33,707 bases of DNA from an uncultured Verrucomicrobiales bacterium (lineage in GTDB: Bacteria > Verrucomicrobiota > Verrucomicrobiia > Limisphaerales > Palsa-1400). Location: positions 1-33,707 of the forward strand of contig CAIUEN010000087.1 in assembly GCA_903898185.1 (NCBI GenBank), given 5' to 3'. Under the pieces are notes generated by a model. That model was not told the DNA's origin, searched no databases, and worked only from the letters and a program-made list of their open reading frames with translations. A program made the position numbers and the translations under genes. Shown here piece after piece: positions 3,521 through 30,301 of the stretch; the first letter of the stretch is position 1, and each line of letters opens with the position of its first letter.

Positions 3521-3677
3521 TGCGAGGTTAGTTTTTTAGCGTTTTCTGATCGAAACCAATGTTCCCAAGTAGTTCGTATTCTGCGCACGGGACTTTTTAC
3601 TATAGCGCGGGTCAACATTTATGCTGTATTCTTTGCTCATGTTGCTTGGGGATTCCTTATGTTAATCTGGTTCGGGT
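3521..3677. other. Intergenic gap upstream of fic
   Basis: This 157-bp AT-rich gap is one of the few breaks in the minus-strand gene string. It could hold the promoter for the fic-HipA-DUF3037-drmA segment. I could not single out a convincing -35/-10 pair. The plus-strand frame crossing it gives no recognisable protein. Confidence 0.35.
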
Positions 3678-14774: not shown

Positions 14775-14911
14775 GCATTACTGAAACGGCGACCTGTGGA
14801 CGCACACTGTTTCTGATAGACCGAATCATCCATCATGGCGCATCCAGACGGCGGCGCGCTTGCAAATGCCGACCTCGCCGCCATCAACGTGATCAGCGAC
14901 AATTAGAAACG

Positions 14912-15147
14912 GCGCACTATAAGCGCCAGAAATCCGGGGTCAATCTGAATACTGCACGGCCGCGACAGGCGGGAGCAAACGCAGGATACCGCAGGGTGTT
15001 ACAAATGAGTTACTCAGAATGGCAGAAGGAGAAATTAGCTCATCGCTGACGATCTTCTGGAAAGAGGGGGACAGGCAAAGATGCACCTATGCTATTCCAC
15101 AAATCAAAAGTCCTGATCCTGAGACGTCGATCTAAAACAACGTACGA
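14912..15147. repeat. Trailer-side copy 1 of duplicated CRISPR flank
   Basis: These ~236 bp match 16652-16888 at roughly 95 percent by eye, with a constant offset of 1740 bases until a one-base indel next to the array. The copy lies at the degenerate-repeat end of array 1. It contains no convincing gene. At its left edge GGCGC and GCGCC form a short hairpin that is broken in the other copy. Bases 14775-14911 to its left are unique and hold nothing I recognise beyond the region upstream of the methyltransferase. Confidence 0.85.
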
Positions 15148-15518
15148 TCCACAACGACCGCGTTAAGCGGTCCTCCGCATGAGCTAGTCGTCATTTCGTT
15201 ATTGGTGTTAAAGGTCACAACGACCGCGTTAAGCGGTCCTCCGCATGAGCTAGTCGTCATTTCGTTATTGGTGTTAAAGGTCACAACGACCGCGTTAAGC
15301 GGTCCTCCGCATGAGGCAAGAAGAGTTTACCAGGAAAACTCGCGAAAGTCACAACGACCGCGTTAAGCGGTCCTCCGCATGAGAATATGAAAGAGATACT
15401 TCATTGGGCGAAAAGTCACAACGACCGCGTTAAGCGGTCCTCCGCATGAGGAGTGGTCAGTTCTCGCAAAGAAGGAGTTCGAGTCACAACGACCGCGTTA
15501 AGCGGTCCTCCACATGAG
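15148..15518 (-). CRISPR. CRISPR array 1: 6 repeats, 5 spacers
   Basis: The 36-bp repeats start at 15148, 15214, 15280, 15348, 15415 and 15483; spacers are 30-32 bp. On the plus strand the repeat begins GTCACAACGACCGCG and ends in GCATGAG. Repeat 1 has a degenerate 5' edge, as expected at the trailer, so the leader is on the right and transcription runs on the minus strand. The first five repeats have G at position 30; the leader-proximal one has A, as do all repeats of array 2. Spacers 1 and 2 (15184-15213 and 15250-15279) are identical, so one repeat-spacer unit has been duplicated. In the minus-strand RNA a 6-bp stem (GACCGC with GCGGTC) is followed by exactly eight nucleotides, GTTGTGAC, fitting the 8-nt handle left by Cas6. 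Confidence 0.97.
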
Positions 15519-15755
15519 GCTGCGGGAAAAAAGGCGTTGTCGTTACGCCAATTACATTCCTATTTCAAAGAACCCCTTTATTTATTACCCATAGTGGGCC
15601 TCTTTTCAAGGAGGTTTTACACGATTCTGACTTTTTTGGTAGCTAAAGCACTTTAGGAGCCCCACCCGTTGCAAAACAATCCTGTCTGCCAACTCCAACT
15701 GCGTGGATGCAAAACGACTTTAGAGAGCGCTTGGAGTTTTGGTCGGCAAATCTGG
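15519..15755 (-). repeat. Leader copy 1, with a remnant of the cas1 3' end
   Basis: About 237 bp nearly identical to 17665-17903, the leader of array 2. At its right end (15720-15755) it still encodes PDLPTKTPSAL plus stop, matching the last codons of the Cas6-RT-Cas1 gene (PDLPTKTPSAI). This shows that the unit was copied from the cas-proximal array. No cas gene continues to the right. Confidence 0.85.
15582..15609 (-). promoter_or_regulatory. Candidate leader promoter of array 1
   Basis: On the minus strand TTGAAA (15604-15609) and TAATAA (15582-15587) are separated by 16 bp, close to sigma-70 consensus, and would drive transcription into the array. The same pair is conserved in the other leader. 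Confidence 0.5.
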
Positions 15756-15775
15756 GATTCCCAATATCGTCGCCC

Positions 15776-16477
15776 CTATGTCTTCACGGAGGTTAAATGT
15801 TTTTGCGTAACAGCCTCCAATTCAGCCGTGATTTGTTCCAGCGGCACGGTGAATCGAATTTGTTTACCGAGGCTCAGCGCTACGGTGTAGGGGTGAATAT
15901 TGAGGGCGGCAGCGGGGGCCACGGCTCTTTTCTTTGCTTTGGGAACTTTTTTAGTCGCCCCTGCCCGACTCGGCAGCCGTTGCCCAACGTTGCGTGATTC
16001 ATTCATCATTCCATCATACAGCCCCATGACAAAAACACTCCGATCACTTGCGTTCACGCCGTCAACCACGCTGAATTGGTCAATGAGAGTTCGAAAGCTC
16101 TGAGCAATGTGCGCGGCAATTTCCGTCAGCTTTCTTGCCGTGCCTGACGTTGACTCGGCCAGTAAATCGCCGTTTTGATAGAAGCATGGAATACTTGTGG
16201 CCGATTCAATGGCCCATTTCACGCAATTGGCCACATCAAATTCATGGTTGCCAAAAGAGTAAATCCGCCGAGCCGTTCTCGATGGTGTGAAGCGACCAGA
16301 AAACAAATCCGGAGTCTCAGCGGGGGCTGGCGCGGTGAAGTCAAACCGCGCTTTGAGTCGCGCCAGTTTGTTTTGAGCCGAGGTTTTCTCGCCGTCAATT
16401 CCGCGTTCGGCCAGAACTTGCAGCTTATTGAATAAGGCCCACGCTTTTGCATTGGCTGGTGTTAAATTCGTTTTCAT
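15776..16477 (-). CDS. Hypothetical protein between the two arrays
   Basis: About 233 residues from the ATG at 16477 (ATG 16486 is also possible). I do not recognise the family with confidence. The N-terminal part (AWALFNKLQVLAERG, then SAQNKLARLKARFDF) has the helical look of DUF2786-like phage and plasmid proteins. The middle holds FGNHEFDVANCVKWA, and the C-terminus is lysine-rich (KKVPKAKKRA) before a conserved-looking NIHPYTVALSLGKQIRF block. It lies wholly within DNA that separates the duplicated array units and has no cas neighbour on its own segment, so it was probably inserted with or after the duplication. A mobile-element or phage origin is an inference. Confidence 0.6.
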   Translation of the reverse strand: MKTNLTPANAKAWALFNKLQVLAERGIDGEKTSAQNKLARLKARFDFTAPAPAETPDLFSGRFTPSRTARRIYSFGNHEFDVANCVKWAIESATSIPCFYQNGDLLAESTSGTARKLTEIAAHIAQSFRTLIDQFSVVDGVNASDRSVFVMGLYDGMMNESRNVGQRLPSRAGATKKVPKAKKRAVAPAAALNIHPYTVALSLGKQIRFTVPLEQITAELEAVTQKHLTSVKT

Positions 16478-16651
16478 GCCGCCCATGGTCAGGATTCGGT
16501 CCGTGAACGGAGGATGACGTTGCTGTATCAGACGGCTCGCAGTCGCCACGAAGCAAATCGGCGACTGACCAGATAAAGGAGGAAAGGTTGGGATCGCTCA
16601 TTTTGACGCTAATGAGTCAATGGAGAATTGGTTTTGGCCAGCATTCATTTT

Positions 16652-16888
16652 GCGCACTATAAGCACCAGGAATCCGGGGTCAATCTGAATACTGCACGGC
16701 CGCGACAGGCGGGAGCAAACGCAGGATACCACAGGGTGTTACAAATGAGTTACTCAGAATGGCAGAAGGAGAAATTAGCGCATCGCTGACGCTCTTCTGG
16801 AAAGAGGGGGACACGCAAAGATGCCCCTATGCTATCCCACAAATCAAAAGTCCTGATCCTGAGACGTCGATCTAAAACAACGTACCAA
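16652..16888. repeat. Trailer-side copy 2 of duplicated CRISPR flank
   Basis: This is the second copy of the 236-bp trailer sequence, next to the degenerate first repeat of array 2. With unique bases 16550-16651 it makes up a 339-bp gene-free stretch. I see no other gene or site in it. Confidence 0.85.
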
Positions 16889-17664
16889 TCCACAACGACT
16901 GCGTTAAGCGGTCCTCCACATGAGCTTAGGGGCTGATGCTGGCACGCCAGTTAGTCACAACGACCGCGTTAAGCGGTCCTCCACATGAGGCCGCGCTGAC
17001 ACTGGATTAATCTTGCCCTAAGGGTCACAACGACCGCGTTAAGCGGTCCTCCACATGAGTCAGGCGGAGGCAAGACCTATAACGAATACAAGTCACAACG
17101 ACCGCGTTAAGCGGTCCTCCACATGAGTTGTTAGGTTGAAAAATAAACAAAACAAAATGTCACAACGACCGCGTTAAGCGGTCCTCCACATGAGTAGCCC
17201 GACTTTCGCTATTCGAGACAAATTGAAGTCACAACGACCGCGTTAAGCGGTCCTCCACATGAGGGTTAGAGAACAAACAATCAAAGAATGACAAGTCACA
17301 ACGACCGCGTTAAGCGGTCCTCCACATGAGTCGTCCACGCCTCAGTCTGGTTGACAATAGTCACAACGACCGCGTTAAGCGGTCCTCCACATGAGTTTGG
17401 ACGGCGGTAAAATTTGTAATGTTTATGTCACAACGACCGCGTTAAGCGGTCCTCCACATGAGTTAGATTTCTCGCCGTAGTGGCTACTACAAACCGTCAC
17501 AACGACCGCGTTAAGCGGTCCTCCACATGAGAATGGGTCTATAATAACGCTAGTTAGGTTTGGTCACAACGACCGCGTTAAGCGGTCCTCCACATGAGAA
17601 GAAAGAATATGAAATTGAATAAAATTATGTCACAACGACCGCGTTAAGCGGTCCTCCACATGAG
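16889..17664 (-). CRISPR. CRISPR array 2: 12 repeats, 11 spacers
   Basis: Repeats start at 16889, 16954, 17024, 17092, 17159, 17228, 17295, 17360, 17427, 17496, 17563 and 17629, each 36 bp; spacers are 29-34 bp and all different by eye. All repeats have A at position 30. Repeat 1 has the same degenerate first bases as in array 1 plus a C-to-T change at position 12, marking it as the oldest. The array therefore grows at the right, next to the Cas6-RT-Cas1 gene, and is read on the minus strand like the cas operon. Several spacers are AT-rich. With a reverse transcriptase in the adaptation protein some spacers may derive from RNA; that cannot be judged without protospacer matches. Confidence 0.98.
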
Positions 17665-17903
17665 GCTGCGGGAAAAAAGGTGTTGTCGTTACGCCACTTA
17701 CATTCCTATTTCAAAGAACCTCTTTATTTATTACCCATAGTTGGCCTCTTTTCAAGGAGGTTTTACACGATTCTGACTTTTTTTGGGAGCTAAAGCACTT
17801 TAGGAGACCCACCCGTTGCAAGACAATCCTGTCTGCCAACTCCAACTGCCTGGATGCAAAACGACTTTAGATAGCGCTTGGAGTTTTGGTCGGCAGATCT
17901 GGA
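17665..17903 (-). repeat. Leader copy 2 (cas-proximal)
   Basis: A 239-bp sequence between array 2 and the adaptation gene, overlapping the last 12 codons and stop of that gene (stop at 17867). It is nearly identical to 15519-15755. It contains a candidate promoter and the AT-rich run expected of a leader. Confidence 0.85.
17728..17755 (-). promoter_or_regulatory. Candidate leader promoter of array 2
   Basis: On the minus strand TTGAAA (17750-17755) and TAATAA (17728-17733) are 16 bp apart and point into the array. The motif is identical in the array 1 leader although bases around it differ, which supports function. Confidence 0.5.
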
Positions 17904-20590
17904 GGGGTGCGCTGGTGGGCGGGCGCTTGGTTGAAATGGGGATAAAGGCGAAAATCGGCGTTGGCGACGGCCCATTGTTCGACGAAGTTGACTTGGGCAA
18001 CCAAAAGCTGGCGAAAAGTGCCTGCATCACCCCGGCGCTGGGTGGCTAGATCTCTTTCAAAAAGTTCGACAATGGAGCTCATACCCTGCTTGGTCATGCG
18101 CCAAGGCTGGTCGGGGGCGGGCTGCTCGAAATGCTCAGGGCGGATGCTGCGGAGATGGAGGCTGTTGATCACCAAGCGATCAAGGCGATAGCGAAATGGC
18201 TCCATCAAGTCATAGACGAGGGATTCATAATAGTCCTTATGACTGTGGAGAAAACCGAGGTAGGGGGAAAGCCCCATGCCGCGCACCAGCACGTTCATGC
18301 GGCTGAAAAGAAGCCAGTACGCAAAATCCATCAGGGCGTTGAAGCGATCCGGCTTCTCATGGGGAAGCCGGCTGGCGCTGGCAAATTCGGGCACGGCGAT
18401 GAGTGTCTGGATGCAGGCGAAGACACGGCGGGCACCCTCGCCCTCGCGACCACGGAGTGATTCGACATTGGCAGCCTGATCGAGAGAGTTCTCGATATCG
18501 CGCAACGCGGAGGCCACCTCACGGGCGGCAATGCCGCGAGAGTCGTGGAGCCACTGTTGGTAACTGGCAAGCTTGGCTGCGACCACGCGCCGGGCGAGGT
18601 CGAGACGCCCAGATTCACCGAGGGCTTGATGGCGGGCGAATTGACGCGCGGCGGTCTCGAAGTGCCGCCGCGAGTCAGGGCGCAGGGTGGACTGGTAGTG
18701 GCCGCCGGCAGAGCAAAACACCACGGGGATGCGGCGCTGGGTGCAGGCGCGCAGGAGTCCCGTGGTCACACAATGGTGGCCAAACAGGATGAGGCAGCCG
18801 AGGCGGCAGAGGGGAAGCCGGGCCACCAAGACCTTCTTCCTGCGGACGACAAGGCTCTCATAATCCAAGCCTATAAAAGCGGTCTCAGGCTGGATAAAAA
18901 GGGGCTGGCGCAGCGCAATGTCTGCGATGTGGACGGCATCCAGATCCGGCCCCACATCGAAGCCGAGAAAGCGAAGGCCGGAGGCGATGGGTGTAATGGA
19001 TGTTTTCTCATCCTTAAGTTCGAGGCCAAGCGAGGCGAGCAGTACGCGAACCTGGTCAAGAGCATCACGGGCAGCTTGCTCGGATTGAGTGAGCACCAAG
19101 AGGTCGTCGCCGTATCGCACGAGGCGGTGGCCAAGTGCTGCGATTCGTTCGTCAAAAGCGTCGAGGTAAAGGTTGGCCAGGAGAGGGGACAGAGGCGACC
19201 CTTGGAGCAGTCCTTTGGCGCGGGGTGGCGCCACTCCATCCACGCGTAAGGATTGGTGAATACATCGGACGAGGAGTGTGCGTGTGGCGGTGTCGCCTCG
19301 TGGCAAGATGCGGTCGAGGGTGGCTTCAAGCTGGGGCCATTCAATTTCGTCGAAAAACGCGGCAATATCGGTCTCCAAGGCGTAAGCGCAGCCTTCTTTG
19401 AGAGCCTCACGGATAAGCTGGCGGGCGGTTTCGATGGAGCGTCCGGGCCGGTAGGCGACGCTGGAATGTTCCAAGAGGCGGTCGCATACCGGGAGCAGGA
19501 GAGTATGAATGGCACGCTGCACAATGCGGTCTCGCGTGGGCAGCTCGGCGATGAGACGGCGATCGTCGCCCGCAGCGGTGCGCTTTTTTTCAATCGTGAA
19601 CCCGGTGGCAACCCCAAGCTCATAGGCCCCAGACTGGATCTCCTGAACGATGGCAGCGCATTCTCCATCACGATCCGCCATTTTGTGGGCGAAGTCATCC
19701 GGCACATCATCGTTATCGAAAAGATCGACCCAAGCGCGCTGGAAAAGGTCGGGATTGCGCAACGCGCAATCGAAAAAAGGGCGACGGCTGAAAAGGCGAA
19801 AGGCCCCTTGGCCGCGGCGCGCTTCATCGCCGGTTTCAAGCTGCAACTCCTGGGCCAGCAGAAGGAGCGGCAGGAATGGCTGCCATGCCCCACGAAGATA
19901 GAGCGGGCCACGCAGACCTTTTACCGTCTCCCCCTTCCAGCTCTCGGCGGTACTGCGGTCAGAAGTTTCGCCTCGGGGATAGACGTTCCAGTAGCAGGGG
20001 ATGATTTCGATGGCATGCCAGGGGAGGTTTTCGACACTTGATTTGGAAATGCCAAGATGTTCCAAGCGTTTGGCGAACTTACGCCCCAGTTCCTGCGTTG
20101 TCAGCAGCCAGGGGCGGTCTTGATCGAGGCGAACAAAGGTCAGCGGGGTGATAAAGTCGAGGCAAACTTCATCAATGGAAGGATCGAAGTTTGCGTTTGA
20201 AAGAGATTCCTGTTGGAGGATGGCCAGAGAGCGTTCTTCGACGAGAGGAGGAGAGTCCAGCGCAAATCCATTTTGTGGGTTGGCAAGATGGGATGCGAGA
20301 TTCTGGCAGAAATGATCGATGTCCGATGGAGCGGCTCCCGGAAAGAAAACATCCGTATGATAAATATGATCTTTGTGAAGGCGTTCACCCCACCAATCGG
20401 CTGCCGGGCGCCAGTGGAGAACGAGTTGAGGCAATGGATCGGCGGCGAAACTGCGGGCGCAATAGATGATGGCGCGAATGACAAAATGAGGGTGGCGGCG
20501 GGCCTCGCGATTGGCCGCGCAGCGCAACGCGAGACGCGCGCGATTCCAACGGATCGCATGAAGGGCGGCGAGTAGTTCAGGGGGAATCAT
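17867..20590 (-). CDS. cas6-RT-cas1: Cas6-reverse transcriptase-Cas1 fusion
   Basis: 907 residues with three domains. Residues 1 to ~270 resemble Cas6, with the glycine-rich KGLRGPLYLRG (224-234) and GDEARRGQGAFRLF (254-267). Residues ~300-550 are a reverse transcriptase: ALETDIAAFFDEIEW (404-418) gives the first catalytic Asp, GLLQGSPLSPLLANLYL follows, and YGDD is at 493-496. Residues ~572-880 are Cas1: the metal ligands appear as Glu716 (GREGEGA), His782 (LGFLH) and Asp794 (VYDLME). All three active sites look intact. Such fusions process crRNA and capture spacers from RNA as well as DNA in type III systems. The gene follows cas2 by 13 bp, and its 3' end lies inside the array leader. It should work with Cas2 and supply Cas6 for both arrays, as no other cas6 is present. 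Confidence 0.96.
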   Translation of the reverse strand: MIPPELLAALHAIRWNRARLALRCAANREARRHPHFVIRAIIYCARSFAADPLPQLVLHWRPAADWWGERLHKDHIYHTDVFFPGAAPSDIDHFCQNLASHLANPQNGFALDSPPLVEERSLAILQQESLSNANFDPSIDEVCLDFITPLTFVRLDQDRPWLLTTQELGRKFAKRLEHLGISKSSVENLPWHAIEIIPCYWNVYPRGETSDRSTAESWKGETVKGLRGPLYLRGAWQPFLPLLLLAQELQLETGDEARRGQGAFRLFSRRPFFDCALRNPDLFQRAWVDLFDNDDVPDDFAHKMADRDGECAAIVQEIQSGAYELGVATGFTIEKKRTAAGDDRRLIAELPTRDRIVQRAIHTLLLPVCDRLLEHSSVAYRPGRSIETARQLIREALKEGCAYALETDIAAFFDEIEWPQLEATLDRILPRGDTATRTLLVRCIHQSLRVDGVAPPRAKGLLQGSPLSPLLANLYLDAFDERIAALGHRLVRYGDDLLVLTQSEQAARDALDQVRVLLASLGLELKDEKTSITPIASGLRFLGFDVGPDLDAVHIADIALRQPLFIQPETAFIGLDYESLVVRRKKVLVARLPLCRLGCLILFGHHCVTTGLLRACTQRRIPVVFCSAGGHYQSTLRPDSRRHFETAARQFARHQALGESGRLDLARRVVAAKLASYQQWLHDSRGIAAREVASALRDIENSLDQAANVESLRGREGEGARRVFACIQTLIAVPEFASASRLPHEKPDRFNALMDFAYWLLFSRMNVLVRGMGLSPYLGFLHSHKDYYESLVYDLMEPFRYRLDRLVINSLHLRSIRPEHFEQPAPDQPWRMTKQGMSSIVELFERDLATQRRGDAGTFRQLLVAQVNFVEQWAVANADFRLYPHFNQAPAHQRTPPDLPTKTPSAI

Positions 20591-20603: not shown

Positions 20604-20897
20604 CTATACCACCAAGGCATGGGTGGCAGCGCCCGCCAAGGGCTCGGCTGTGTATGGAGTGCCAAACTGGTAGCGGCGGGCACGATCGTCGAGCCGACAA
20701 ACGGCGATGCTGCCGGTGGTGATTTGGAGTGATTCCAATTGGCGGCAAAGGTCTGCGAGCGCCGTGCGGCTGAGGCGGCATTCGAAGACGCTGAACTGGA
20801 TGCGCAGTCCGAAAGCCTCAACCACTTTAGCCACGCGGTTGCGTTCCCGATCTTCAGTCACGTCGTAACAAACAAGGTAATTGGCAGCGCGGGGCAT
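20604..20897 (-). CDS. cas2: CRISPR-associated endonuclease Cas2
   Basis: 97 residues from the ATG at 20897 (a GTG at 20924 is less likely). The Cas2 start YLVCYDVTEDRERNRVAKVV is clear, with the conserved Asp in CYDVTED, then FGLRIQFSVFECRLS as the second strand region. Cas2 dimers bridge Cas1 dimers in the spacer-integration complex. It sits directly upstream of the Cas6-RT-Cas1 gene in one operon. Confidence 0.96.
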   Translation of the reverse strand: MPRAANYLVCYDVTEDRERNRVAKVVEAFGLRIQFSVFECRLSRTALADLCRQLESLQITTGSIAVCRLDDRARRYQFGTPYTAEPLAGAATHALVV

Positions 20898-20923
20898 GAG
20901 GTGGAAAAAGAGGTGTGGCGACA

Positions 20924-21301
20924 CTACGCCGGTAAGGGCGGCGGTAGGGGTTGGCCGTTATGCAGTTCCAGCCACCTGCGGAGTCGGATGAGCACGTCAG
21001 CGCTGGTGTGGCCATCCCATAGAGGCGCGCGCTCAAAGGTGCGGACGGCGGTGTCATTGAGTAGCGACCAGAAGGTGTCTGGAAGATGATAGGAGATGTC
21101 GCCGGTCGGCAGTCGCATTCCGCCCACCCACCATCCCGGATGGCCGGAACCATCGTCATGCAACCTGGACCTCCAAGCGAGAGCCGGGTGAGCTTGCATG
21201 AGCGCCACAAAAAGAAGACAGCGATGGTCGTAGAGTTCGCCAAAGGTATGGTAGCCGTCCGATATTTCGGAGGTGGCGCAGGGGATGGTGAGGGTGGGCA
21301 T
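20924..21301 (-). CDS. Phage-type conserved protein inside the cas operon
   Basis: 125 residues. Its pattern (ISDGYHTFGELYDHRCLLF, then AWRSRLHDDGS, GWWVGGM, ISYHLPDTFW and PLWDGHTSADVLIRLRRWL) matches a family I know from many phage genomes, of unknown function. Here it sits between the RAMP gene and cas2, on the same strand and with short gaps (42 bp upstream and 27 bp or less downstream), so it is part of the operon. The conserved Trp, His and Asp positions are all kept, so it is probably functional and not a decayed insert. Possible roles are a recruited accessory factor or a captured phage gene. An anti-CRISPR role is speculation. Confidence 0.75.
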   Translation of the reverse strand: MPTLTIPCATSEISDGYHTFGELYDHRCLLFVALMQAHPALAWRSRLHDDGSGHPGWWVGGMRLPTGDISYHLPDTFWSLLNDTAVRTFERAPLWDGHTSADVLIRLRRWLELHNGQPLPPPLPA

Positions 21302-21343: not shown

Positions 21344-23203
21344 TCAGATAAATCGGAAACGATAATTGGCATTACCCAAACTCAGATATTCCATCTGGTA
21401 GTCTTTGCCCTCACTGAGTTCTTGAGGAATTTCTTTCTGGTCAGATTCTTCCCAAAGGATACCGGTTTGCAGAGAGCTGCCACTGCTGATCTCAAATTTT
21501 AGCTTTAGGCTTTTGGATCTGCCAAGATATTTGCAGCTAACCGGACCGGCCCACTTAACCCCAAGTGGAACGGTTGGAGTTGTCGGTTTTGGCGGAACCA
21601 AGGCTGATTTGGGTAATACCGTGCTGGGCGTTGCAGCTTCAATTGGTATCGGGAGATTACCATCTTGCCAACAGGAGGGATAGGGAGGCTTGGAGCTTGG
21701 CTCTCGCTTCAACAAAGGCAATTCAGTAAAGCCGCAGGTGTTATCGTTTGTGAGAGGCCGCAAGAATTGGCCGGCGGCCTTCTCCTTCTCATTGGCAACA
21801 AACCACTCGTAGCTGTTACGCTCCATTTCGGGGCCGGTGACCTCAACAGGGTGGGCATCATGTGCATTATTCATTTGTCCTTCTGCGGTTGCTCTGAAAG
21901 GGCGTCTATCAGGCTGGGGATAGTGAACAGGGTTTGTGACTTTGGATGGATCACCCACTAGCTCAATCGCTTGAAGAACTGGCATCAAAGCAGGATAACG
22001 ATCCTTGATATAATCACGATATTGGTTCGCCCGGCTCATGGGACTCATTGTCGCCAAGCCAGCAGCAATCTCATAATTATAGCACGGCGGAAAGTCCGTC
22101 TCATGCTCATGGATCCATGCTTCATGGTAACGGTTACCGTTGAGAGCGTGCGCTGTGTAACGTTCCTTGCGATTGATCAAAAACAAGCCAACGGGCACGA
22201 TTTTGATTTTGCCGAGGCCGAGGGGTTTGCCCATGCCTAGCTTGTGGTGGTAGGCATTTGAAGGTTGTAAGGCGTAGCACAGAAGCTGCAATTCCAGATC
22301 TGAAAGATTGTCAAAATCAATATGGAACCAGAATCTGCCACCATTGAGCGGGGCAACTTTGGCTTTCTGATGAGCCTGATCGTTTGGATTGCATGACATC
22401 CAGTCTGAATCCATCAAACTCGCCCGGTGCAGATAAAACTTCCTGCCCTGAGGCCGGTGATAAGGAAGTTTGAGTGAAAGTTTTGGTATGAATGCTCCGT
22501 TGTTTCCGGCTGCAAAATAAAGACTTGGCGAGGGCGGCTTGGGTGAGTCGAGAATTTGAGTGCTATTTGTTGTGATTTGGTTAGACTGCATGCCGTGCTG
22601 AATAGCATGAAAGAAACGAATTCTGCTCGCTAGAGCGAACGCCTTCCAGTTCCGGTCGGCTCGGCCATCCTCTGCCAACTCCTCGACTACTCCAAACATC
22701 TGCTCAGCGATACTGAGATTTCTTCGACCATCCCGATGATGTAAAGGGAGCAGCTCGGGAGATAAGTACCTGAAGTAGTCATATGTTTTGCCTAAAGGCT
22801 GTCGCGGGAGGTCGCGACCAGCACTCAGGGATAGCGGCGCATTTTCTAGCACCCGAAGAGCTGAATTGCTGGCAGCCTCGGCCAAACTTGAGATTAATCC
22901 TCGGAGAGCACTCCCAGGAATGCCCCATTCACCATTGATCTTAAAAAGTGCCACTTCTCTTGGACTCCCGGTCTTCTTGTCGCCGGGAGTTTGAACCGCA
23001 CCAATTGCCAGAAGTTCACAAACTGTCAGGTGGCAAACCAAACGCCCGGAATATGTCTCAGGGACAAATCGATCATGTGTCAGATGAGGCGGCCAAGGAG
23101 TAGGATTGCGATATTTGTGCTCGTCCGGCTCAAGAGCAACGGCTCCAAGTCCAGTTTCGTTTGGAGTAGGAACGAAGTGGTAGGGATTATGGAAGTTAGG
23201 CAT
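21344..23203 (-). CDS. TIGR03986-like RAMP protein (Cas7-insertion-like)
   Basis: 619 residues. The start FHNPYHFVPTP and the RAMP motif IPGSALRGLISSLAEAASN (94-112) identify the TIGR03986 family of type III RAMP proteins. A glycine-rich loop occurs as KLGMGKPLGLGKIKI around 330-344. The region between looks like a large insertion in a Cas7 fold. The last ~110 residues after a proline-rich linker form a separate small, probably beta-rich domain (VPLGVKWAGPVSCKYLG onward). It should bind crRNA and/or target RNA as a backbone subunit. The preceding tandem-Cas7 gene overlaps its start by 8 bp. It resembles the Cas7-insertion subunit of type III-Dv complexes, which is inference from size and context. 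Confidence 0.85.
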   Translation of the reverse strand: MPNFHNPYHFVPTPNETGLGAVALEPDEHKYRNPTPWPPHLTHDRFVPETYSGRLVCHLTVCELLAIGAVQTPGDKKTGSPREVALFKINGEWGIPGSALRGLISSLAEAASNSALRVLENAPLSLSAGRDLPRQPLGKTYDYFRYLSPELLPLHHRDGRRNLSIAEQMFGVVEELAEDGRADRNWKAFALASRIRFFHAIQHGMQSNQITTNSTQILDSPKPPSPSLYFAAGNNGAFIPKLSLKLPYHRPQGRKFYLHRASLMDSDWMSCNPNDQAHQKAKVAPLNGGRFWFHIDFDNLSDLELQLLCYALQPSNAYHHKLGMGKPLGLGKIKIVPVGLFLINRKERYTAHALNGNRYHEAWIHEHETDFPPCYNYEIAAGLATMSPMSRANQYRDYIKDRYPALMPVLQAIELVGDPSKVTNPVHYPQPDRRPFRATAEGQMNNAHDAHPVEVTGPEMERNSYEWFVANEKEKAAGQFLRPLTNDNTCGFTELPLLKREPSSKPPYPSCWQDGNLPIPIEAATPSTVLPKSALVPPKPTTPTVPLGVKWAGPVSCKYLGRSKSLKLKFEISSGSSLQTGILWEESDQKEIPQELSEGKDYQMEYLSLGNANYRFRFI

Positions 23204-24794
23204 TGTATTTCAATGGTGGAGGTTGTGGCTCGTTTGCAAAGTGTGATGGGTTACTGTCCAATAAGCTCAGCCACTCATTAAGCTTAAGGCTGTTTCCATT
23301 ATTGAACTCTGGATCGCACACTTCGATATCAGCCCGAACACAATGGCCGTAGCCTTTTGCGGATCCAGATCCGAAGCACAGTTCACCCTCGGCAAGATCT
23401 CGCAAGGGAAAGGCGAGAAGAAGTCGCGTCTGAGCATGGTCAACCGGCCTCAACCGATGGAGAGCAACTGTAATACTGCCTTCAAGCGAGGCTCCAACGA
23501 TGGAGCGGGCATCAAACTTCTTTTTGTCGGCCACCCCACCTGTGAATCGATCCACAGCCACGAAGTCTTGGTACAAATAGGTTGGTGCGCACACAGTATT
23601 GAGCTTGAATTTGGATACCGAGGCTGCAGCCAGCCAGCCAGATCTTCCAAAAAGCTGGGCCGCAAGATCTGATTTCCAGACAGTTTCCAAGGCGTTGGCA
23701 CACGATACTCCATTGGATGTAATGGGTGAGTATTCCGAAGACTGCGGCACGGGGACGTTCAGCGTGCGGAGAATAACTTCCAGACGTGATCGCAAGACAC
23801 CCCGCACCGCCTTGGCTGGAATGAAAGGTTTACCGGTTTCGTCAAGGTGAGGAGCGGCATTCGGTTCTTTAGGCAACTGAACAATTCCTGTCCTGGTCGC
23901 ATTTTGTTCGGCTACGTTCCTAGCCTTCTCAGCGCGCACTGCTTGGAGTGGGTCACGCACTAAAAGAGGGCCTGGGAAATGGAGGGTGATGTTTACCGAG
24001 AGAAACTCGCCCCGCGATGGAATAGGAGTGGCTTTGGCTCGCAATTCGTCACGTTTGACCAGTCGAGCACAGCAGTTATATCCCGCTACAAGATTTGTTT
24101 TCCAAGCGTCCAAATCTGATGCAAGGAAACATCTCATTTCATTAGAGACTTTGCATGTGACCTGTCCCCAGGAGTTGCTGGCTTGAGCCCCAAGAGTGGC
24201 GCGTGTTCTGGAGGGGCCATTAAAGGTGTCCAGCAGATGCAATACGCGGGCAACGGCCTCATCTGAGAGGTTCGCCCCGCTTATTTCAAAGGCGAAGACT
24301 TCATCTGCCGGGACGTACTCGATATGGTAAAGAAGTTGGTCTGCCGCAGTACGGGTTCGGCGGTCGAGCGATACTGAAACCGCGACACATGTGCGGCGTT
24401 GATGGTTCCAAAAGGGCCGGTTCCGGTCGTCGATTTTTTTGTTGGGACCCGTGCCATTGGAATGAAAGGCATCCCAGAACTCCAACTGGCCACCAACCGC
24501 ATCTTGGGAATCGGGTGAACCAGAGCCTAAAAGCGCTTCCCAAGTTGCGTCCCACGTTCCGCTGGAAAACACTTGCGCCCGCAAGACTCCCTTGATGGCG
24601 GAACCAGGAATGAACGCACGCCCTTGGTAGTCAACACACACGGTGGAAGCCTCGGATTCACTGTCGTTGGCGGGGCGCGAGCGATCTCCGATCATGGCTT
24701 CACCCCCATCGCCGATGTGGAGTTCAGATTCCGTGGTCAGCGTGCCAGCGATAAGCCAGCGGTTCTCAAACTTGGGCGGCAGATTCTCGTTCAT
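23196..24794 (-). CDS. Tandem Cas7 (Csm3-like) fusion protein, Cas7-2x-like
   Basis: 532 residues with two RAMP (Cas7) domains. The first, ~13-220, has LHIGDGG, FIPGSAIKGVLR (61-72), SLDRRTRTAADQLLY (142-156) and a weak glycine loop near 201-212. The second, ~262-500, has FIPAKAVRGVLRSRLE (324-339), VDRFTGGVADKKKFD (414-428, typical of Csm3) and FGSGSAKGYGHCV (474-486). Two fused backbone subunits in one chain are the signature of the Cas7-2x protein of type III-Dv complexes. Csm3-type subunits cut target RNA at 6-nt steps using an Asp in the loop before the IPGS motif; likely candidates are present in the first domain but I cannot name the residue. The gene overlaps both neighbours, so expression is coupled. 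Confidence 0.87.
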   Translation of the reverse strand: MNENLPPKFENRWLIAGTLTTESELHIGDGGEAMIGDRSRPANDSESEASTVCVDYQGRAFIPGSAIKGVLRAQVFSSGTWDATWEALLGSGSPDSQDAVGGQLEFWDAFHSNGTGPNKKIDDRNRPFWNHQRRTCVAVSVSLDRRTRTAADQLLYHIEYVPADEVFAFEISGANLSDEAVARVLHLLDTFNGPSRTRATLGAQASNSWGQVTCKVSNEMRCFLASDLDAWKTNLVAGYNCCARLVKRDELRAKATPIPSRGEFLSVNITLHFPGPLLVRDPLQAVRAEKARNVAEQNATRTGIVQLPKEPNAAPHLDETGKPFIPAKAVRGVLRSRLEVILRTLNVPVPQSSEYSPITSNGVSCANALETVWKSDLAAQLFGRSGWLAAASVSKFKLNTVCAPTYLYQDFVAVDRFTGGVADKKKFDARSIVGASLEGSITVALHRLRPVDHAQTRLLLAFPLRDLAEGELCFGSGSAKGYGHCVRADIEVCDPEFNNGNSLKLNEWLSLLDSNPSHFANEPQPPPLKYNA

Positions 24795-26631
24795 GAGGCG
24801 GAAGGATAGACGCGGTCAGATTGACCGACTGTGTTGTTGTTGGCGGGGACACATGCTGGGCGATTTCGCCGAAACCATTCTGCGGCAGGTAAAAGTTTGT
24901 TCTCCAAGTATTTCCATAACTATCGATTGCCCACTTGGGAAGTTTCAGTCCGGTGGCCAGCCAAGACTTCAGTCTTTCATTTGCCTTTTCTGCATCAGTA
25001 ACCGTGAAGACAAATACGCTGCCTGCAGCGGTAAGGAGCCAGGGGTTATAGGCTTTGTTCCGTTGAAAGCGCTTGGCAAGGTGATTGCCTCCGGAGAGAA
25101 ATTGCCGGGCAAAGTGGTGATAGAGATCTATGGCTCCACCGGAGAGCTCTGTCCATGCGTCACGATAAAGAACAAACATTTCGGTTGCTGAGAGCGCCCC
25201 AAATTTCGGAATACCTTCCACGTTTTGGAATCTCGGATCGGCCAGCAATGCCGGCGTTTGCAACGCGAGCATGAGTGTCTGCCCCTGTGTTAATGGAGGG
25301 CCGGATACTGGGGTGGTGACGAGTTTGACATCGGCGTCACAGACGGCTTTGGTTTTGCTGAGGAAACCAAGCTGTGGCAGAAGAAAGGCAATCGCCTCCG
25401 CAACAGCTTTGCGATCCTTTGAGGGGACGTCTGCAATGTCAATAGAAGTCATCCAAGCGATGGGCGTGCCGTCTTCGGTGAATGGATGTGCCATTTCCCA
25501 AGCGAAGAGCTTTCCTCCCATGCCGTTCTCCCCTCGATGGGCCATACGCTTTTGGGGATCGATGGCAGTGCGCACACGGAGTTCTCGTGCGGGGAAGGCC
25601 CAGCCCATTTTCTTATGAACGTCGGAAGTGTCCTTCCAGTCAGGTACAAAGGCGGGGGCGACAAAGGCTCTCTTCTGATCCTGACAAAGAACCGGATCCC
25701 GGCAAACAGCCACATCATAAGGAATCTCCCCCACTTTAACTGTGGATAGAGGCACAACGGTGGGACGCCCTCCCGTCTCCAACGCTGGAAAGGCGTGCCG
25801 GAAGCGGATTAAGTCGAAGTGCAAAGCCAATTCTGCGTGGACTGGGTCCTTGGTACCGCACTCCTTGAGCGTGGAGCCTACCGGCAGTCCGCAAAGGGCG
25901 GCCCAGGTTTCCACCATGGCACCTGCAATCATGTTGCCGGGAATAATGTCATCCGACTCAAAAAGGTTATCCCCAATCTTATGTTTGGAAACGCAGAGCG
26001 GTCCCTTGGGGCGAAGAGCCACTGAGAGGGCGCAAACATCAACTGCTGTGGAGCATGAAACTGGATGTTCATCGGTTGCCTCAACTTTCACTCCTGTCAC
26101 CCTGCCGAATCCGGTGGTACGATTGGCGCCAATCTGTGTCAACCAAGAAAGCCCCTGACGTAACCGTTCACCAACACTTTCCGCAGCATTTGCATCGCCG
26201 TAATACCAAGCCTTGCCAGAAAAAGTGACGGAGGCTCCGGCTGCAAATGGGGTCTCGATATTGCGCAGCATCTGGGCCTGAGAGGATCCCAAGACATGTT
26301 CGATGGCGTTACGACTGCATGTGCCTGTGCCGCCGGACGTGGTGGCAATGAGATCTCCAAACAGGATGCGTCCACGCTGCGGCTCGTTGCCGGAACCAAT
26401 CTCCGTGTCTTGACCAAAAAAAGCACTCACCTCATCCGCATAACCAATCTCAAGCAGCGACTCGCGGACCTTGCCTTTGATGAGTGTGCCAGGCAGGTAA
26501 GGTTTTCCGGCATCAGGACCGTGAGCTATACGGGCTACAGCAGCATCAAGGCCAAAATTGGAGGGAGAGGAGGACTTGGTAAGAACCGGTCCGCGCAAGG
26601 TTAGATCAATCGTAAAAAGGTGGCGTCTCAT
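24766..26631 (-). CDS. Cas7-Cas5-like fusion RAMP protein
   Basis: About 621 residues from the ATG at 26631, which overlaps the cas10 stop (ATGA). The first ~200 residues are a Cas7-type RAMP domain: PYLPGTLIKGKVRESLLE near 45-60 and the glycine loop GANRTTGFGRV near 187-197. A second RAMP unit starts at ALSVALRPKGPLCVSKHKIG and contains IIPGNMIAGAMVETW, similar to the Csx10/Cas5-type of type III-D. The C-terminal ~190 residues are not recognised; in type III-Dv the matching protein is a Cas7-Cas5-Cas11 fusion, so a Cas11-like tail is possible but not shown. No separate small-subunit gene exists in the operon, which supports that idea. Confidence 0.8.
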   Translation of the reverse strand: MRRHLFTIDLTLRGPVLTKSSSPSNFGLDAAVARIAHGPDAGKPYLPGTLIKGKVRESLLEIGYADEVSAFFGQDTEIGSGNEPQRGRILFGDLIATTSGGTGTCSRNAIEHVLGSSQAQMLRNIETPFAAGASVTFSGKAWYYGDANAAESVGERLRQGLSWLTQIGANRTTGFGRVTGVKVEATDEHPVSCSTAVDVCALSVALRPKGPLCVSKHKIGDNLFESDDIIPGNMIAGAMVETWAALCGLPVGSTLKECGTKDPVHAELALHFDLIRFRHAFPALETGGRPTVVPLSTVKVGEIPYDVAVCRDPVLCQDQKRAFVAPAFVPDWKDTSDVHKKMGWAFPARELRVRTAIDPQKRMAHRGENGMGGKLFAWEMAHPFTEDGTPIAWMTSIDIADVPSKDRKAVAEAIAFLLPQLGFLSKTKAVCDADVKLVTTPVSGPPLTQGQTLMLALQTPALLADPRFQNVEGIPKFGALSATEMFVLYRDAWTELSGGAIDLYHHFARQFLSGGNHLAKRFQRNKAYNPWLLTAAGSVFVFTVTDAEKANERLKSWLATGLKLPKWAIDSYGNTWRTNFYLPQNGFGEIAQHVSPPTTTQSVNLTASILPPHERESAAQV

Positions 26632-27389
26632 GGCAATGCATAATCCCAAAGCTCTTCGAGTTGAATCCAGAGGGCAGCCGGGCTATTCCAAAACAGGGGG
26701 AGCAGATCATCGTGCAGATGTTTCCTTTCGATCTCGCCCGCATTCCGAAAGGCGTGAGGCGGCCACATTTCGCTATTCTTGGATTTGAACATGGCCAATT
26801 CACCGACCTTGCCTGGTGGTGCTGCCAACATCTCACTGACGAGGCGGCGCAATTGGCTGCGGGCAAAAGATTCAGATTGGCGAAGTATCGTGATGCGCTT
26901 TGCGATATCGGAAATGCAGGCAGCAAGAGGTTTTTCCGAGGTTCCCCTGAGAATAATTTGCTCCAAGGGAATGGCTTTCCTGTAGCGCTTGTTCATGGCG
27001 CTTTCAAAATCTGCCCCCAAGTGATCGAATGATTCCAAGGCAACACACACCAACTGATCGTGTTTCCTGCATGTTTTTTTAGCAAACTCCGCCATTTGGT
27101 CTTTGGCCAGGCGTTTGATGCGCTCAATGGGGGCATGATGGTGGCAGAAGACGAGGGCTGCTGCATGGGTAATAGCCTCATCAGCCGCCAAGGATGTGCA
27201 GTTGCTGGTACTGGCTTGATTCAGATTCAAGCCACCCATTTTCTCAAAGAAAAATGCCGCAAAGCGCCAGCCCAACGCTGCGGGCATCACGAACATGACT
27301 TCGTCACCCCCCCCAAAGCAGTGTTTCAAAGCGGATTTCGACTTCTGTTTCCTTTTCCAGAGCCGTCGTCCTCCATTCCCTCTTTTCAA
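26628..27389 (-). CDS. cas10: Cas10 C-terminal part (after frameshift), GGDE palm domain
   Basis: 253 codons in the longest open frame, but the first ~26 residues are out-of-frame reading of the upstream half. Cas10 sequence begins at GGDEVMFVMPAALGW, the second palm domain with a GGDE motif in place of the usual GGDD. A conserved FCHHHAPIERIKRLAKD block follows, and the rest is helical. Removing one G from the G8 run at 27307-27314 joins this piece to the upstream half as one 537-residue protein. No HD nuclease domain is present. As written, this half has no good start of its own. Cas10 organises the type III complex and makes cyclic oligonucleotide or SAM-AMP signals through the GGDD/GGDE site. 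Confidence 0.88.
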   Translation of the reverse strand: MKRGNGGRRLWKRKQKSKSALKHCFGGGDEVMFVMPAALGWRFAAFFFEKMGGLNLNQASTSNCTSLAADEAITHAAALVFCHHHAPIERIKRLAKDQMAEFAKKTCRKHDQLVCVALESFDHLGADFESAMNKRYRKAIPLEQIILRGTSEKPLAACISDIAKRITILRQSESFARSQLRRLVSEMLAAPPGKVGELAMFKSKNSEMWPPHAFRNAGEIERKHLHDDLLPLFWNSPAALWIQLEELWDYALP

Positions 27390-28242
27390 TGTTGCTAATC
27401 TCGGTCAGGATGAAATCTGTCAGAAATGATTCGCGGCGGAAACGAAGGAACTCATCAAAGGCAATTTGCCGCTCGGAATCTGTGCAGTGTTCGGTTTGCT
27501 TCTTGCCAAAGTGGTTTCCGTCCGCATAGAAGACAGCTAATTTGCCGTCCAGTGGATTGCCATTCTGTGTGGCAATTGTTTCGAAATCTTTGGCGAAAGA
27601 AGGAAGCGCCACAGAGGTTATTTTGCCCTTCTTTTCAAGGTCTGTTTCCCTCTTAGCCACGCGACCAAGGATACGAACATAAAACCTCTGTTTAGCATTC
27701 TGTCCATAATTTCGCCTCGCAAGCACAGCATCACTAATAAAAGATTCCTTATCCTGACCCCGGTTCGGCGCGCCGTGATTATTGTCCCTGACTGCGGGGC
27801 GAATACCATCCAAGGCGCAGGCGGGCTTGGCCATGCTGCCCTGAGTAATTCGACGTGGCACCGCCAAAGAGGAAGCCTGCATTTGGCGCCAACGGTTTGC
27901 TGCATAGAGGGCTTCGATGTCTCGCCGGAACTCGCCCGAGTTTGCAACCACATCAACGACGAAGGTGCAGTATTTATAACCGTCCCTAAGAGCATCACGC
28001 ACGGATGCCGCCACCGTGACGGGGTCGGTTATCTCGATTGCGAAGAGTCCAGACGACGCTCCCTGACTGAGGACGCGGACATTGCTCCGGCCAATCAAAC
28101 ATTCCAATTTCAATTTGGCCGCGCGCACGGCATTCAACAGCATCAAACTGCCGCCGCGAGTGGTGGAAAGATCACGTGTGTCGAAGACGAACGAAGCAAG
28201 ATTGACGCCTTCGATGCGAAGCAAATATGATGACGTGCTCAT
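27304..28242 (-). CDS. cas10: Cas10 N-terminal part, first palm domain, truncated by frameshift
   Basis: 312 residues. LAVFYADGNHFGK is the metal-binding strand of the first Cas10 palm domain. The preceding ~200 residues lack an HD motif, so this Cas10 is a cyclase-type protein without the ssDNase domain. The frame ends in FETLLWGG and stop, because the G8 run at 27307-27314 shifts it; with seven G the sequence would run FETLLWGGDEVMFVMP. The ATG at 28242 overlaps the stop of the CorA-like gene (ATGA). Seen: the extra base. It may be a sequencing or assembly error, a true inactivating mutation, or a reversible slippage site. Confidence 0.9.
   Translation of the reverse strand: MSTSSYLLRIEGVNLASFVFDTRDLSTTRGGSLMLLNAVRAAKLKLECLIGRSNVRVLSQGASSGLFAIEITDPVTVAASVRDALRDGYKYCTFVVDVVANSGEFRRDIEALYAANRWRQMQASSLAVPRRITQGSMAKPACALDGIRPAVRDNNHGAPNRGQDKESFISDAVLARRNYGQNAKQRFYVRILGRVAKRETDLEKKGKITSVALPSFAKDFETIATQNGNPLDGKLAVFYADGNHFGKKQTEHCTDSERQIAFDEFLRFRRESFLTDFILTEISNIEKREWRTTALEKETEVEIRFETLLWGG
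27307..27314 (-). other. G8 homopolymer at the Cas10 GGDE motif (frameshift site)
   Basis: Eight G on the coding strand encode part of Trp-Gly-Gly. Seven would keep cas10 open through GGDE; eight give a stop directly after the two glycines. Slippage by one base would therefore switch cas10 on or off at its active site. Confidence 0.85.
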
Positions 28243-29981
28243 TTATTGTTTTTCAGATAGCGCTTTTGCAGGAACCAGAAGAAAACTGACCAGACAACAA
28301 CGAAAGACACAAATATGATCAGGTTTGCGCAGGGAGAGTGAGTTGTACAGTTATTTGGAGCCTTATTAAGAGTTCCATTCATAAGCCAATCTGACAACCT
28401 AATAAGCAACCCGATAAGCCCATCTGTCACCCCCGGGATCTGGAACATGCCGAAGGCTGCCGAGACTCCAAAACCAAAGACAGCAAGCTTGTTCAAGGAG
28501 TAGGAAAGTTTGTTCCGGCGTTCTTCCACTTCTGCGCTGAGCAATTCGTCGCTACTGGCAATTTGCTTGGATACTTCAGCGTAAAGATCGTCAATGTCCA
28601 TGTTCTTTCGCGCACAAGTATACATTTCAATGGCTTGCTGCTGGTTGGAGAGCAAAGGGAACTGGTAGAGGTTCTCAAAACAGGTAAACGCACGACGCAA
28701 TTTGCGAAAAGCAATCTTCCATTCATCCAAAGGCTGTTCTGATTCCGCTTTTGCAGATGCGCAGACCACATTCCCAGTTATTGTCGTCAGTTCTCCGCTG
28801 AATCTGAACAGTGTGACCCGGAGGTAAAGCAGTAAAAGCACCTGATCAAAATACATCTGGAACCAATGCTGCCAAGTTGGCAGGTAGTCGAAGGATTCCG
28901 CCATCATTGCCGCGCTAAAACTGTTAAAACCATAATAACAGTTGTAGTGCTCCCACCGGCGGTAGGTTCGCTCGTCCACCCATTTCCGCTCAAATGCAGT
29001 TGCTATATTGGTAGTCGTCGAGGGTTCGTATCCTGCAATCTTGCCAGCGCTATAGCGGAGCGAGGGTTTGTCCACATTCAACAACTTAATCCAGTATCCA
29101 AACATTGAACGGAGGCCGGTTTCAGGATTCTCCTCGGCTCTCCACTTATCACCAGCACCTGTATGAGGAATGATGAAGTTCATTTGCGTCTCGGAACGCA
29201 ATGCCCGCGTCCAAACAAACGCCCTATCATCCGCATAGTCACCGAAGGTGGCCATCGCGATGGCCTTGGGATCTGGAGATGCTTTCTCTAACAAGACGCG
29301 ACCATCATCAAGTGGCACACAAAGCATGGACAGCCAACGTGCTTCGTAGGGATCGGACATCGTGCCGAATGCTTTGGCAATACCAACCAACTGTTGCTCA
29401 AATTCCAGATTGTGCTTCTCGTAAGGCTTGCGCCAGTAGCGGAATAGTTCGTTGAAAAGTAACAAATCATCAAGCCGTAGAGCCGCGTTGTCGCCTTCCG
29501 GGAAGGCGACCTCCACCACAAGAAAGCCGTGACGCAAGAGCTTTTCTCCGCAATGGTACTCAAACAACACCAGAGCCGGGGGGAGAACTTTTCCAACCAG
29601 TTCTTGCCCGTCGGGCGCTGTCATAGTGAGTGGCTTTGGTTCGCCGGTCATCACCCACCACGTCGCGCGAGCAAACATTACGTCTCGCGTCTCAGCGGTA
29701 AAATATTTTTCGCGAGCCTCTATGTTTTCCCAAATCCACCCATTCTTGTCCTTCTTATCCATTCTACGATAATAAGGTTTGCGGTCTGTCCCGCCAGACT
29801 CCACGCGTGGCAGTTTCTTTGCCGCTATAGACAACTTGAACGGGAGGATAAATCGTGTCGCTGAGTGCGGCCTACTTAACGTAGATGCGCTAGACCCAGG
29901 AGCCATGGGTGCATTGAGAGATGTGCCTGCTTTGCATGCGTCACCGGATGCGCTTTGGTCAGTTGCATTCTCTTGATTCAT
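28239..29981 (-). CDS. CorA-like membrane protein, probable type III CRISPR ancillary effector
   Basis: 580 residues from the ATG at 29981. A long soluble part is followed by two C-terminal membrane helices, about 497-514 (LAVFGFGVSAAFGMFQ) and 554-573 (LIIFVSFVVVWSVFFWFL), with a short basic cytoplasmic end. This is the CorA topology, and GMFQIPG after the first helix resembles the GMN loop of CorA channels in a modified form. CorA-like proteins are known effectors of some type III systems, activated by SAM-AMP made by Cas10. No NrnC-type nuclease or SAM-AMP lyase gene is visible here. It is first in the cas operon and overlaps cas10 by ATGA. The frame could start at 30263, but the extra 94 codons look non-coding. 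Confidence 0.72.
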   Translation of the reverse strand: MNQENATDQSASGDACKAGTSLNAPMAPGSSASTLSRPHSATRFILPFKLSIAAKKLPRVESGGTDRKPYYRRMDKKDKNGWIWENIEAREKYFTAETRDVMFARATWWVMTGEPKPLTMTAPDGQELVGKVLPPALVLFEYHCGEKLLRHGFLVVEVAFPEGDNAALRLDDLLLFNELFRYWRKPYEKHNLEFEQQLVGIAKAFGTMSDPYEARWLSMLCVPLDDGRVLLEKASPDPKAIAMATFGDYADDRAFVWTRALRSETQMNFIIPHTGAGDKWRAEENPETGLRSMFGYWIKLLNVDKPSLRYSAGKIAGYEPSTTTNIATAFERKWVDERTYRRWEHYNCYYGFNSFSAAMMAESFDYLPTWQHWFQMYFDQVLLLLYLRVTLFRFSGELTTITGNVVCASAKAESEQPLDEWKIAFRKLRRAFTCFENLYQFPLLSNQQQAIEMYTCARKNMDIDDLYAEVSKQIASSDELLSAEVEERRNKLSYSLNKLAVFGFGVSAAFGMFQIPGVTDGLIGLLIRLSDWLMNGTLNKAPNNCTTHSPCANLIIFVSFVVVWSVFFWFLQKRYLKNNK

Positions 29982-29987
29982 GAGGGC

Positions 29988-30015
29988 ATCATAATAATTT
30001 CTCTTAAAGTTGCAA
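29988..30015 (-). promoter_or_regulatory. Candidate promoter of the corA-cas operon, possibly leaderless
   Basis: On the minus strand TTGCAA (30010-30015) and TATGAT (29988-29993) are 16 bp apart, a strong sigma-70-like pair. The ATG at 29981 begins only 7 bases after the -10 box, so the transcript would start at or next to the start codon. That agrees with the lack of a ribosome site there. Confidence 0.4.
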
Positions 30016-30301
30016 GGCCATATTTTGCGCCTGTCATTAAACTCATAACATGTTTGTAATGCAGCCGTTGCGTCGGCAATAGATCCCGAATGTTCTATGA
30101 ACTCGAAATTCAGTTGGATTTGCGATTTATTATGAGATACTTGACTGCATCTGGGCTGGTGAGTGTGCTGATGCATTGTTTCAAGGCGCGGGGTATCCTC
30201 TCTGGAGTTCTTCGCGCTCAGTGGCCAGGGCACTCTGATGTTGAAGCATTGAGGAGTTTGCATCTTGGAAAGTTTTCACGGTGTAAACTACATTTCAGTA
30301 A

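What the first reader, a model, noticed from the sequence alone, without database searches (positions are those of the whole stretch)
20924..21301. Phage-type protein of unknown function built into the cas operon
The protein keeps all conserved blocks of a family I otherwise know from phage genomes, yet sits between a RAMP gene and cas2 with short gaps. It may be a recruited accessory factor (for example in spacer selection) or a captured phage gene that acts on the system.
Basis: partly seen in the sequence, partly recalled or inferred. Interest (0 to 1): 0.62.

Follow-up and report, generated by a model that had tools for sequence, protein, structure and literature searches.

The report
Phage-type WDGH gene in CRISPR operon
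A small protein otherwise known only from phages sits at the same place in a rare membrane-effector (CorA) CRISPR operon of two bacteria from different families, so it was probably recruited to serve the immune system's effector arm, perhaps by destroying its alarm molecule, although its function has not been tested.

Summary
The gene is real. Window 20924-21301(-) encodes a 125-aa WDGH-domain protein (Pfam PF25311, E=2.5e-32), full length, keeping 21 of 22 strongly conserved columns of its phage/prophage relatives. It lies 42 nt after a TIGR03986 cas7, and its stop codon overlaps a GTG start of cas2, in the operon corA-cas10-csx10-cas7-cas7-WDGH-cas2-RTcas1. It is not a one-off. Among all 320 genomes held of this order, WDGH occurs in three. 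In one (G578, another family) it again directly follows the same cas7 in a homologous corA operon. Both genomes with this effector carry it; the third copy is a fragment at a contig edge. In G578 it sits at the end of the locus away from RT-cas1, so it follows the effector module, which weakens the spacer-selection idea. The predicted structure is confident (pLDDT 92) and matches no solved fold. III-B CorA systems carry an enzyme that destroys the messenger SAM-AMP; III-D loci were reported to lack known ones, and its DHH domain is absent from these CorAs. I propose WDGH as the missing signal-degrading partner, a phage protein taken over by the host. Recruitment to the effector module is likely (about 0.75); signal degradation is a hypothesis (about 0.3).

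The parts
20924..21301 (-). WDGH-domain protein, 125 aa (the finding)
   Evidence: PF25311 E=2.5e-32; PHROG 3392/3769; AlphaFold2 model pLDDT 92
21344..23203 (-). TIGR03986-family Cas7 (RAMP), type III-D like
   Evidence: TIGR03986 E=9.4e-60; solved relative 9wxh chain D E=2.7e-53
23196..24794 (-). second Cas7 (RAMP, two domains), type III-D like
   Evidence: PF03787 E=6.6e-25; PADLOC Cas7_IIId E=3.8e-31
24766..26649 (-). Csx10/Cas5-like RAMP subunit
   Evidence: PADLOC PDLC01408 E=1.3e-64; solved relative 9wxh chain C E=1.2e-76
26628..28242 (-). Cas10, read as two overlapping frames (27304-28242 and 26628-27389) because of a G8 run in its GGDE motif at 27307-27314
   Evidence: PADLOC Cas10 hits in both frames; sequence of junction; intact homologue in G578; 9wxh chain B
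28239..30263 (-). CorA-like membrane effector without the DHH (NrN-type) domain; N-terminal ~100 aa not conserved, true start may be downstream
   Evidence: PADLOC CorA E=9e-34; alignment with G578, Arcobacter and Haliscomenobacter CorA; no DHH_CorA match
20604..20924 (-). Cas2 (GTG start overlapping the WDGH stop, or ATG at 20897)
   Evidence: TIGR01573 E=2.4e-15
17867..20590 (-). RT-Cas1 fusion, possibly with an N-terminal Cas6-like region (weak)
   Evidence: Cas1 E=5.5e-56, RVT_1 E=5.9e-30, CRISPR_Cas6 E=0.064 below cut-off
16891..17678 (-). CRISPR array (12 repeats), same repeat type as 15150-15532
   Evidence: strand taken from the operon
15150..15532 (-). second CRISPR array (6 repeats) with duplicated flanks
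   Evidence: strand taken from the operon

Best explanation
A small WDGH-domain protein of phage origin has become the last gene of the effector operon of a rare type III-D-like CRISPR system that uses a CorA membrane effector. Most likely it serves the second-messenger arm. When crRNA-bound effector meets phage RNA, Cas10 makes a nucleotide messenger (SAM-AMP or a related molecule) that opens CorA. WDGH binds and destroys that messenger, either resetting CorA or keeping it responsive, as NrN phosphodiesterases and SAM-AMP lyases do in III-B CorA systems. In phages the same domain would be a counter-signalling or other accessory protein. Shown: identity, position, recurrence with the effector module, conservation of the polar motif residues, absence of a DHH domain in these CorAs, lack of a matched known fold. 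Inferred: that it is an enzyme, that its substrate is the messenger, and the direction of transfer from phage to CRISPR.
For: Recurrence at one position: G578:C221 carries corA-cas10-csx10-cas7-cas7-WDGH (gap 25 nt). This cas7 occurs in only 2 of 293 genomes of the order and both have WDGH beside it, while WDGH is in 3 of the 320 held. It goes with the effector, not RT-Cas1: eight genomes with RT-Cas1-like hits were searched for csx10 and only G578 has it, and in G578 WDGH is at the far end from RT-Cas1. Conserved residues D15, H18, Y24, R27, H48, H72, D96, H98 are kept in both. WDGH is the best conserved protein pair of the operon (56% against 34-46%). CorA-fused DHH phosphodiesterase is found in Arcobacter and Haliscomenobacter CorA but not in these two; none found in G000, G578 or G616. 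Precedent: a phage-type SAM-AMP lyase replaces NrN beside CorA and is needed for immunity in the reconstituted system (PMC10600005, PMC12255297). III-D CorA loci were reported to lack known SAM-AMP cleavage enzymes (PMC12669027).
Against: Only two intact cases, both in one bacterial order. No biochemical or fold evidence for any activity: no Foldseek PDB match at E<=0.001 and no Z of 5 or more. WDGH does not sit beside corA but at the other end of the effector operon. [quoted passage not shown]). In the window, the G+C at third positions of WDGH (0.70) resembles cas2 (0.68) and RT-cas1 (0.65) rather than cas7 (0.49), which would fit an adaptation link. Whether these CorAs sense SAM-AMP is unknown: a putative RR pair of III-B CorAs reads R-Y here (assignment is inference). 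The gene tree neither supports nor rejects a single origin of the CRISPR copies (p-AU 0.29 and 0.40). The DHH_CorA search had no positive control inside that search.
Confidence: 0.33

Rival explanations
1. WDGH is an adaptation factor: it works with Cas2 and RT-Cas1 in choosing, trimming or reverse-transcribing prespacers.
For: In the window it is translationally coupled to cas2 (TAGTG overlap) and followed by RT-cas1. Its third-position G+C matches those two genes and not cas7. All three WDGH genomes of the order also have an RT-Cas1 hit.
Against: In G578 WDGH has no cas1/cas2 beside it and lies at the far end of the locus from RT-Cas1. Other RT-Cas1 loci, including a second one in this genome with cas2 beside it, have no WDGH.
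Confidence: 0.17
2. WDGH is an extra subunit or regulator of the RNA-guided effector complex (for example an RNA- or protein-binding clip on Cas7 or Cas10), not an enzyme on the messenger.
For: It directly follows the cas7 gene in both genomes. The effector operon is otherwise a plain Cas10/Csx10/Cas7/Cas7 set.
Against: A profile of WDGH finds no chain in the PDB, so it is not among the chains of the solved relative 9wxh. The homologous operon of Tistrella pTM1 has no WDGH among its annotated genes and a Cas6 gene at that place. Phages keep the same polar motif residues without any Cas protein.
Confidence: 0.15
3. WDGH is a captured phage anti-CRISPR or neutral passenger that does not serve the host system.
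For: The family is typical phage accessory cargo: between coat and gp4 genes in P22-like phages, 'detailed function unknown', and in prophages of cyanobacteria at up to 59% identity. The G616 copy has lost the DGH motif and sits at a contig edge.
Against: Retention at one operon position in two deeply diverged copies of the operon, with the polar motif intact. Intergenic gaps are short and no insertion scar is seen.
Confidence: 0.2
4. WDGH is an immunity protein against CorA itself: it binds the channel or keeps its leak in check instead of acting on the messenger.
For: CorA is toxic on its own in E. coli and NrN reduces that toxicity regardless of activation (PMC10600005). WDGH and CorA occur together in both intact loci.
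Against: No direct evidence. The conserved His/Arg/Asp set looks more like a catalytic or ligand site (inference).
Confidence: 0.12

Closest known systems
WDGH domain family (Pfam PF25311; PHROGs 3392 and 3769; P22-like phage Orf186 / epsilon34 gene 6)
   Same: Same domain over nearly its whole length, all motif blocks, E=2.5e-32; full-length phage homologue without extra domains, 55% identical (L003)
   Different: Known members looked at here lie in phages or prophage-like loci; this one and G578's lie in cas operons
SAM-AMP lyase of CorA type III-B systems and its phage homologue AcrIIIB4 (PMC12255297)
   Same: Phage-type small protein recruited into a CorA type III operon, with phage-borne relatives
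   Different: The lyase is a PII-like trimer; WDGH shows no match to any solved fold. The lyase sits beside corA in III-B, WDGH at the other end of a III-D-like operon. WDGH activity untested
NrN / DHH_CorA phosphodiesterase of CorA type III-B systems
   Same: Accessory gene of CorA systems; proposed same job
   Different: Unrelated sequence; in Arcobacter and Haliscomenobacter it is fused to CorA, here the DHH domain is absent
Type III-D effector solved as PDB 9wxh/9wxi/9wxj
   Same: Cas10, Csx10-like and TIGR03986 subunits are clear relatives (E=1e-31 to 1e-76)
   Different: Its TIGR03986 chain is 1235 aa, about twice the length here; no WDGH chain
Tistrella mobilis pTM1 type III-D-like operon
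   Same: cas10-csx10-cas7-cas7 in the same order
   Different: No corA annotated, no WDGH; a Cas6 gene follows cas7

Membership tests
WDGH domain family (PF25311) | Scores over the curated Pfam cut-off across the domain | tested here: met
   111.5 bits against 27, profile 2-96 of 97
WDGH domain family (PF25311) | Conserved motif residues (SDGYHTF..LY..R, H..DG, H, WDGH) | tested here: met
   21 of 22 columns kept
WDGH domain family (PF25311) | Same predicted fold as phage members | tested here: met
   BFVD models of WDGH phage proteins, TMq 0.70-0.80 for the nine best, E down to 4e-13
Type III-D CRISPR effector | Cas10 with Csx10/Cas5-like and TIGR03986-type multi-domain Cas7 subunits | tested here: met
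   Cas10 reading frame is broken in the assembly
CorA (SAM-AMP) type III systems | corA gene in the operon | tested here: met
   PADLOC CorA E=9e-34, G578 E=1.6e-36
CorA (SAM-AMP) type III systems | Associated NrN (DHH) phosphodiesterase | tested here: not met
   No DHH_CorA hit in operon proteins or CorA while the model finds it in two III-B CorAs; whole-genome search empty but without inner control
CorA (SAM-AMP) type III systems | Cas10 makes SAM-AMP and CorA binds it | not testable with these tools
   needs biochemistry; putative CorA ligand pairs only partly kept
SAM-AMP lyase | PII-like fold with catalytic Glu | tested here: inconclusive
   no lyase or other PII-like protein among the PDB matches shown, but a missing match does not exclude it
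CRISPR adaptation factor | Linked to cas1/cas2 across loci | tested here: not met
   linked in the window, not in G578; other RT-Cas1 loci of the order lack it

The most novel reading that the evidence does not exclude
WDGH is the missing signal-degrading partner of CorA-type III-D CRISPR systems, an enzyme with a fold not seen before, and its many phage relatives are unrecognised counter-signalling (anti-CRISPR-like) proteins.
Probability: 0.22. Interest if true: 0.85.

Novelty: new variant of a known kind. Interest (0 to 1): 0.58.

Why it matters
[quoted passage not shown] This finding names a concrete candidate gene, with phage relatives in well-studied laboratory phages, so the question can be tested directly. 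If right, it would also give a first function to a widespread phage protein family of unknown role and structure.

Tried and rejected
Literature search for 'WDGH' found no paper on the family. RT-Cas1 search in viral contigs found nothing. A scan of genome contigs with WDGH gave 22 loci, none with homologues of the window's cas genes and those examined prophage-like; its two exact patterns would have missed the G578 copy, so that negative is weak. WDGH hits in the phage collection and in seven plasmid records were not beside cas genes as far as looked at. Phylum samples (388 and 319 genomes) found no further WDGH or csx10. Structure comparison with the PDB gave no usable match, only weak partial hits such as FACT/Spt16 domains and ribosomal L38e (Z up to 4.3), judged as common arrangements. 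The idea that WDGH replaces the Cas6 found at the same place in Tistrella was dropped: neither sequence search nor fold comparison links WDGH to Cas6. A single capture of WDGH by this system could not be shown or excluded from the tree.

Full report
What is there. The minus-strand ORF 20924-21301 (125 aa) is a full WDGH-domain protein (PF25311, E=2.5e-32; PHROG 3392 E=9.5e-33). It keeps 21 of 22 columns that are at least 85% conserved among 44 phage and prophage relatives. It is the sixth gene of a co-directional operon: corA (28239-30263), cas10 (two frames, 26628-28242), csx10/cas5-like (24766-26649), cas7 (23196-24794), TIGR03986 cas7 (21344-23203), WDGH, cas2 (20604-20924), RT-cas1 (17867-20590), followed by two CRISPR arrays. 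The gap to cas7 is 42 nt and the WDGH stop codon overlaps a GTG start for cas2. There is no flanking duplication and no terminator-like site at the junctions.

Where else it occurs. In phages it is common accessory cargo: 155 phage records, up to 52% identity, for example between the coat and gp4 genes of P22-like phages, where it is described as of unknown function and, in P22, not essential in the laboratory. The closest sequences outside the order are prophage-like loci of cyanobacteria (59%; neighbours) and a 65-kb viral contig (55%, full length). In the window's bacterial order, all 320 genomes held were searched: three carry WDGH, the window's, G578 and G616. From the pattern of genome sizes I suspect Verrucomicrobiota, but this was not established.

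The second cas operon. In G578, contig C221, WDGH again follows the TIGR03986 cas7 (25-nt gap) as the last gene of corA-cas10-csx10-cas7-cas7-WDGH, all minus strand. The cas proteins are 34-46% identical to the window's and WDGH 56%. The cas7 query finds only these two genomes among 293, so both carriers of this effector have WDGH beside it. G616 has a WDGH C-terminal fragment at a contig edge, with the DGH motif lost and no csx10 found; it is not counted as a case. If WDGH were placed independently of the effector, both effector genomes would be among the three WDGH genomes with probability about 7e-5 (3 of 42,778 pairs; my arithmetic), before counting the exact adjacency.

Effector, not adaptation. 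In G578 the RT-Cas1 gene is on contig C125. C125 and the corA end of C221 carry the same 30-nt repeat (8 and 13 exact copies), so they belong to one system, with WDGH at the opposite end from RT-Cas1. A short array with a related but different repeat follows WDGH. Other RT-Cas1 loci in the order, including a second in this genome (G000:C34, with cas2), lack WDGH. Against this, third-position G+C of WDGH in the window (0.70) is like cas2 and RT-cas1 (0.68, 0.65), not cas7 (0.49), so an adaptation link cannot be excluded for the window alone.

What it looks like. An AlphaFold2 model from 48 relatives has mean pLDDT 92: helix, three strands, short helix, strand, helix. Foldseek finds WDGH phage proteins in the viral library but nothing at E<=0.001 in the PDB. 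A second look gives no Z of 5 or more, and a profile search of PDB sequences is empty. Many of the conserved residues are polar or glycine: D15, G16, H18, Y24, R27, H48, H72, D96, G97, H98.

Why a signal partner. III-B CorA systems make SAM-AMP, which activates CorA, and immunity in the reconstituted system requires a degrading enzyme, NrN or a SAM-AMP lyase; the lyase has phage relatives (PMC10600005, PMC12255297). For III-D CorA systems no known SAM-AMP cleavage enzyme is encoded, and the messenger is unclear (PMC12669027). I checked this here: CorA of Arcobacter and Haliscomenobacter plasmids carries a fused DHH domain (PADLOC DHH_CorA E=1.6e-64 and 1.3e-46), while the CorAs of the window and G578 align only from the sensor domain on and have none. 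WDGH is the only accessory gene common to both loci besides corA. That makes it the best candidate for the missing partner; it is not proof.

Caveats. Two intact cases within one order; genome sampling beyond it was partial, and the genome-contig scan used exact peptide patterns that the G578 copy does not match. The CRISPR copies are not shown to have a single origin. The window's cas10 has a G8 run in the GGDE motif that breaks the frame, so this copy may be inactive or the assembly wrong; the G578 cas10 is intact.

Verdict. Real, recurrent, and linked to the effector module (about 0.75). Proposed mechanism: destruction of the CorA messenger (about 0.3). New variant of a known kind: a known phage domain as a new accessory of CorA type III-D systems.

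Noticed in passing
27307-27314: A run of eight G inside the GGDE motif of cas10 puts the gene in two frames; the G578 homologue is intact (WGGDE). Assembly error, slippage or a dead copy.
   Followed up: partly
14912-15145 and 16652-16885; 15483-15755 and 17629-17902: The CRISPR array with both flanks is duplicated (95-97% identical flanks), enclosing an unknown 257-aa ORF (15776-16549).
   Followed up: no
L108 (G000:C34) 1175-3817: A second RT-Cas1 in the same genome (39% identical) with cas2, flanked by arrays on both sides; repeats share GTCACAACGA with the window's. L107 (G494) shows the same layout.
   Followed up: no
L103 4970-5142: Three repeats just after WDGH in G578 share a core (CCGGTG-CACCGGACAGG) with, but differ from, the system's main repeat.
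   Followed up: no
L116 (Tistrella mobilis pTM1) 10244-18807: Homologous III-D-like operon on a plasmid, with no corA annotated, a Cas6 gene after cas7 and a 1115-aa unknown protein next to it.
   Followed up: partly
17867-20590: The first ~300 aa of RT-Cas1 show a weak Cas6-like match (E=0.064); no separate cas6 was found in the operon.
   Followed up: no
L012, L013: In some phages the WDGH domain is part of longer proteins; a viral structural match is annotated DUF551.
   Followed up: no
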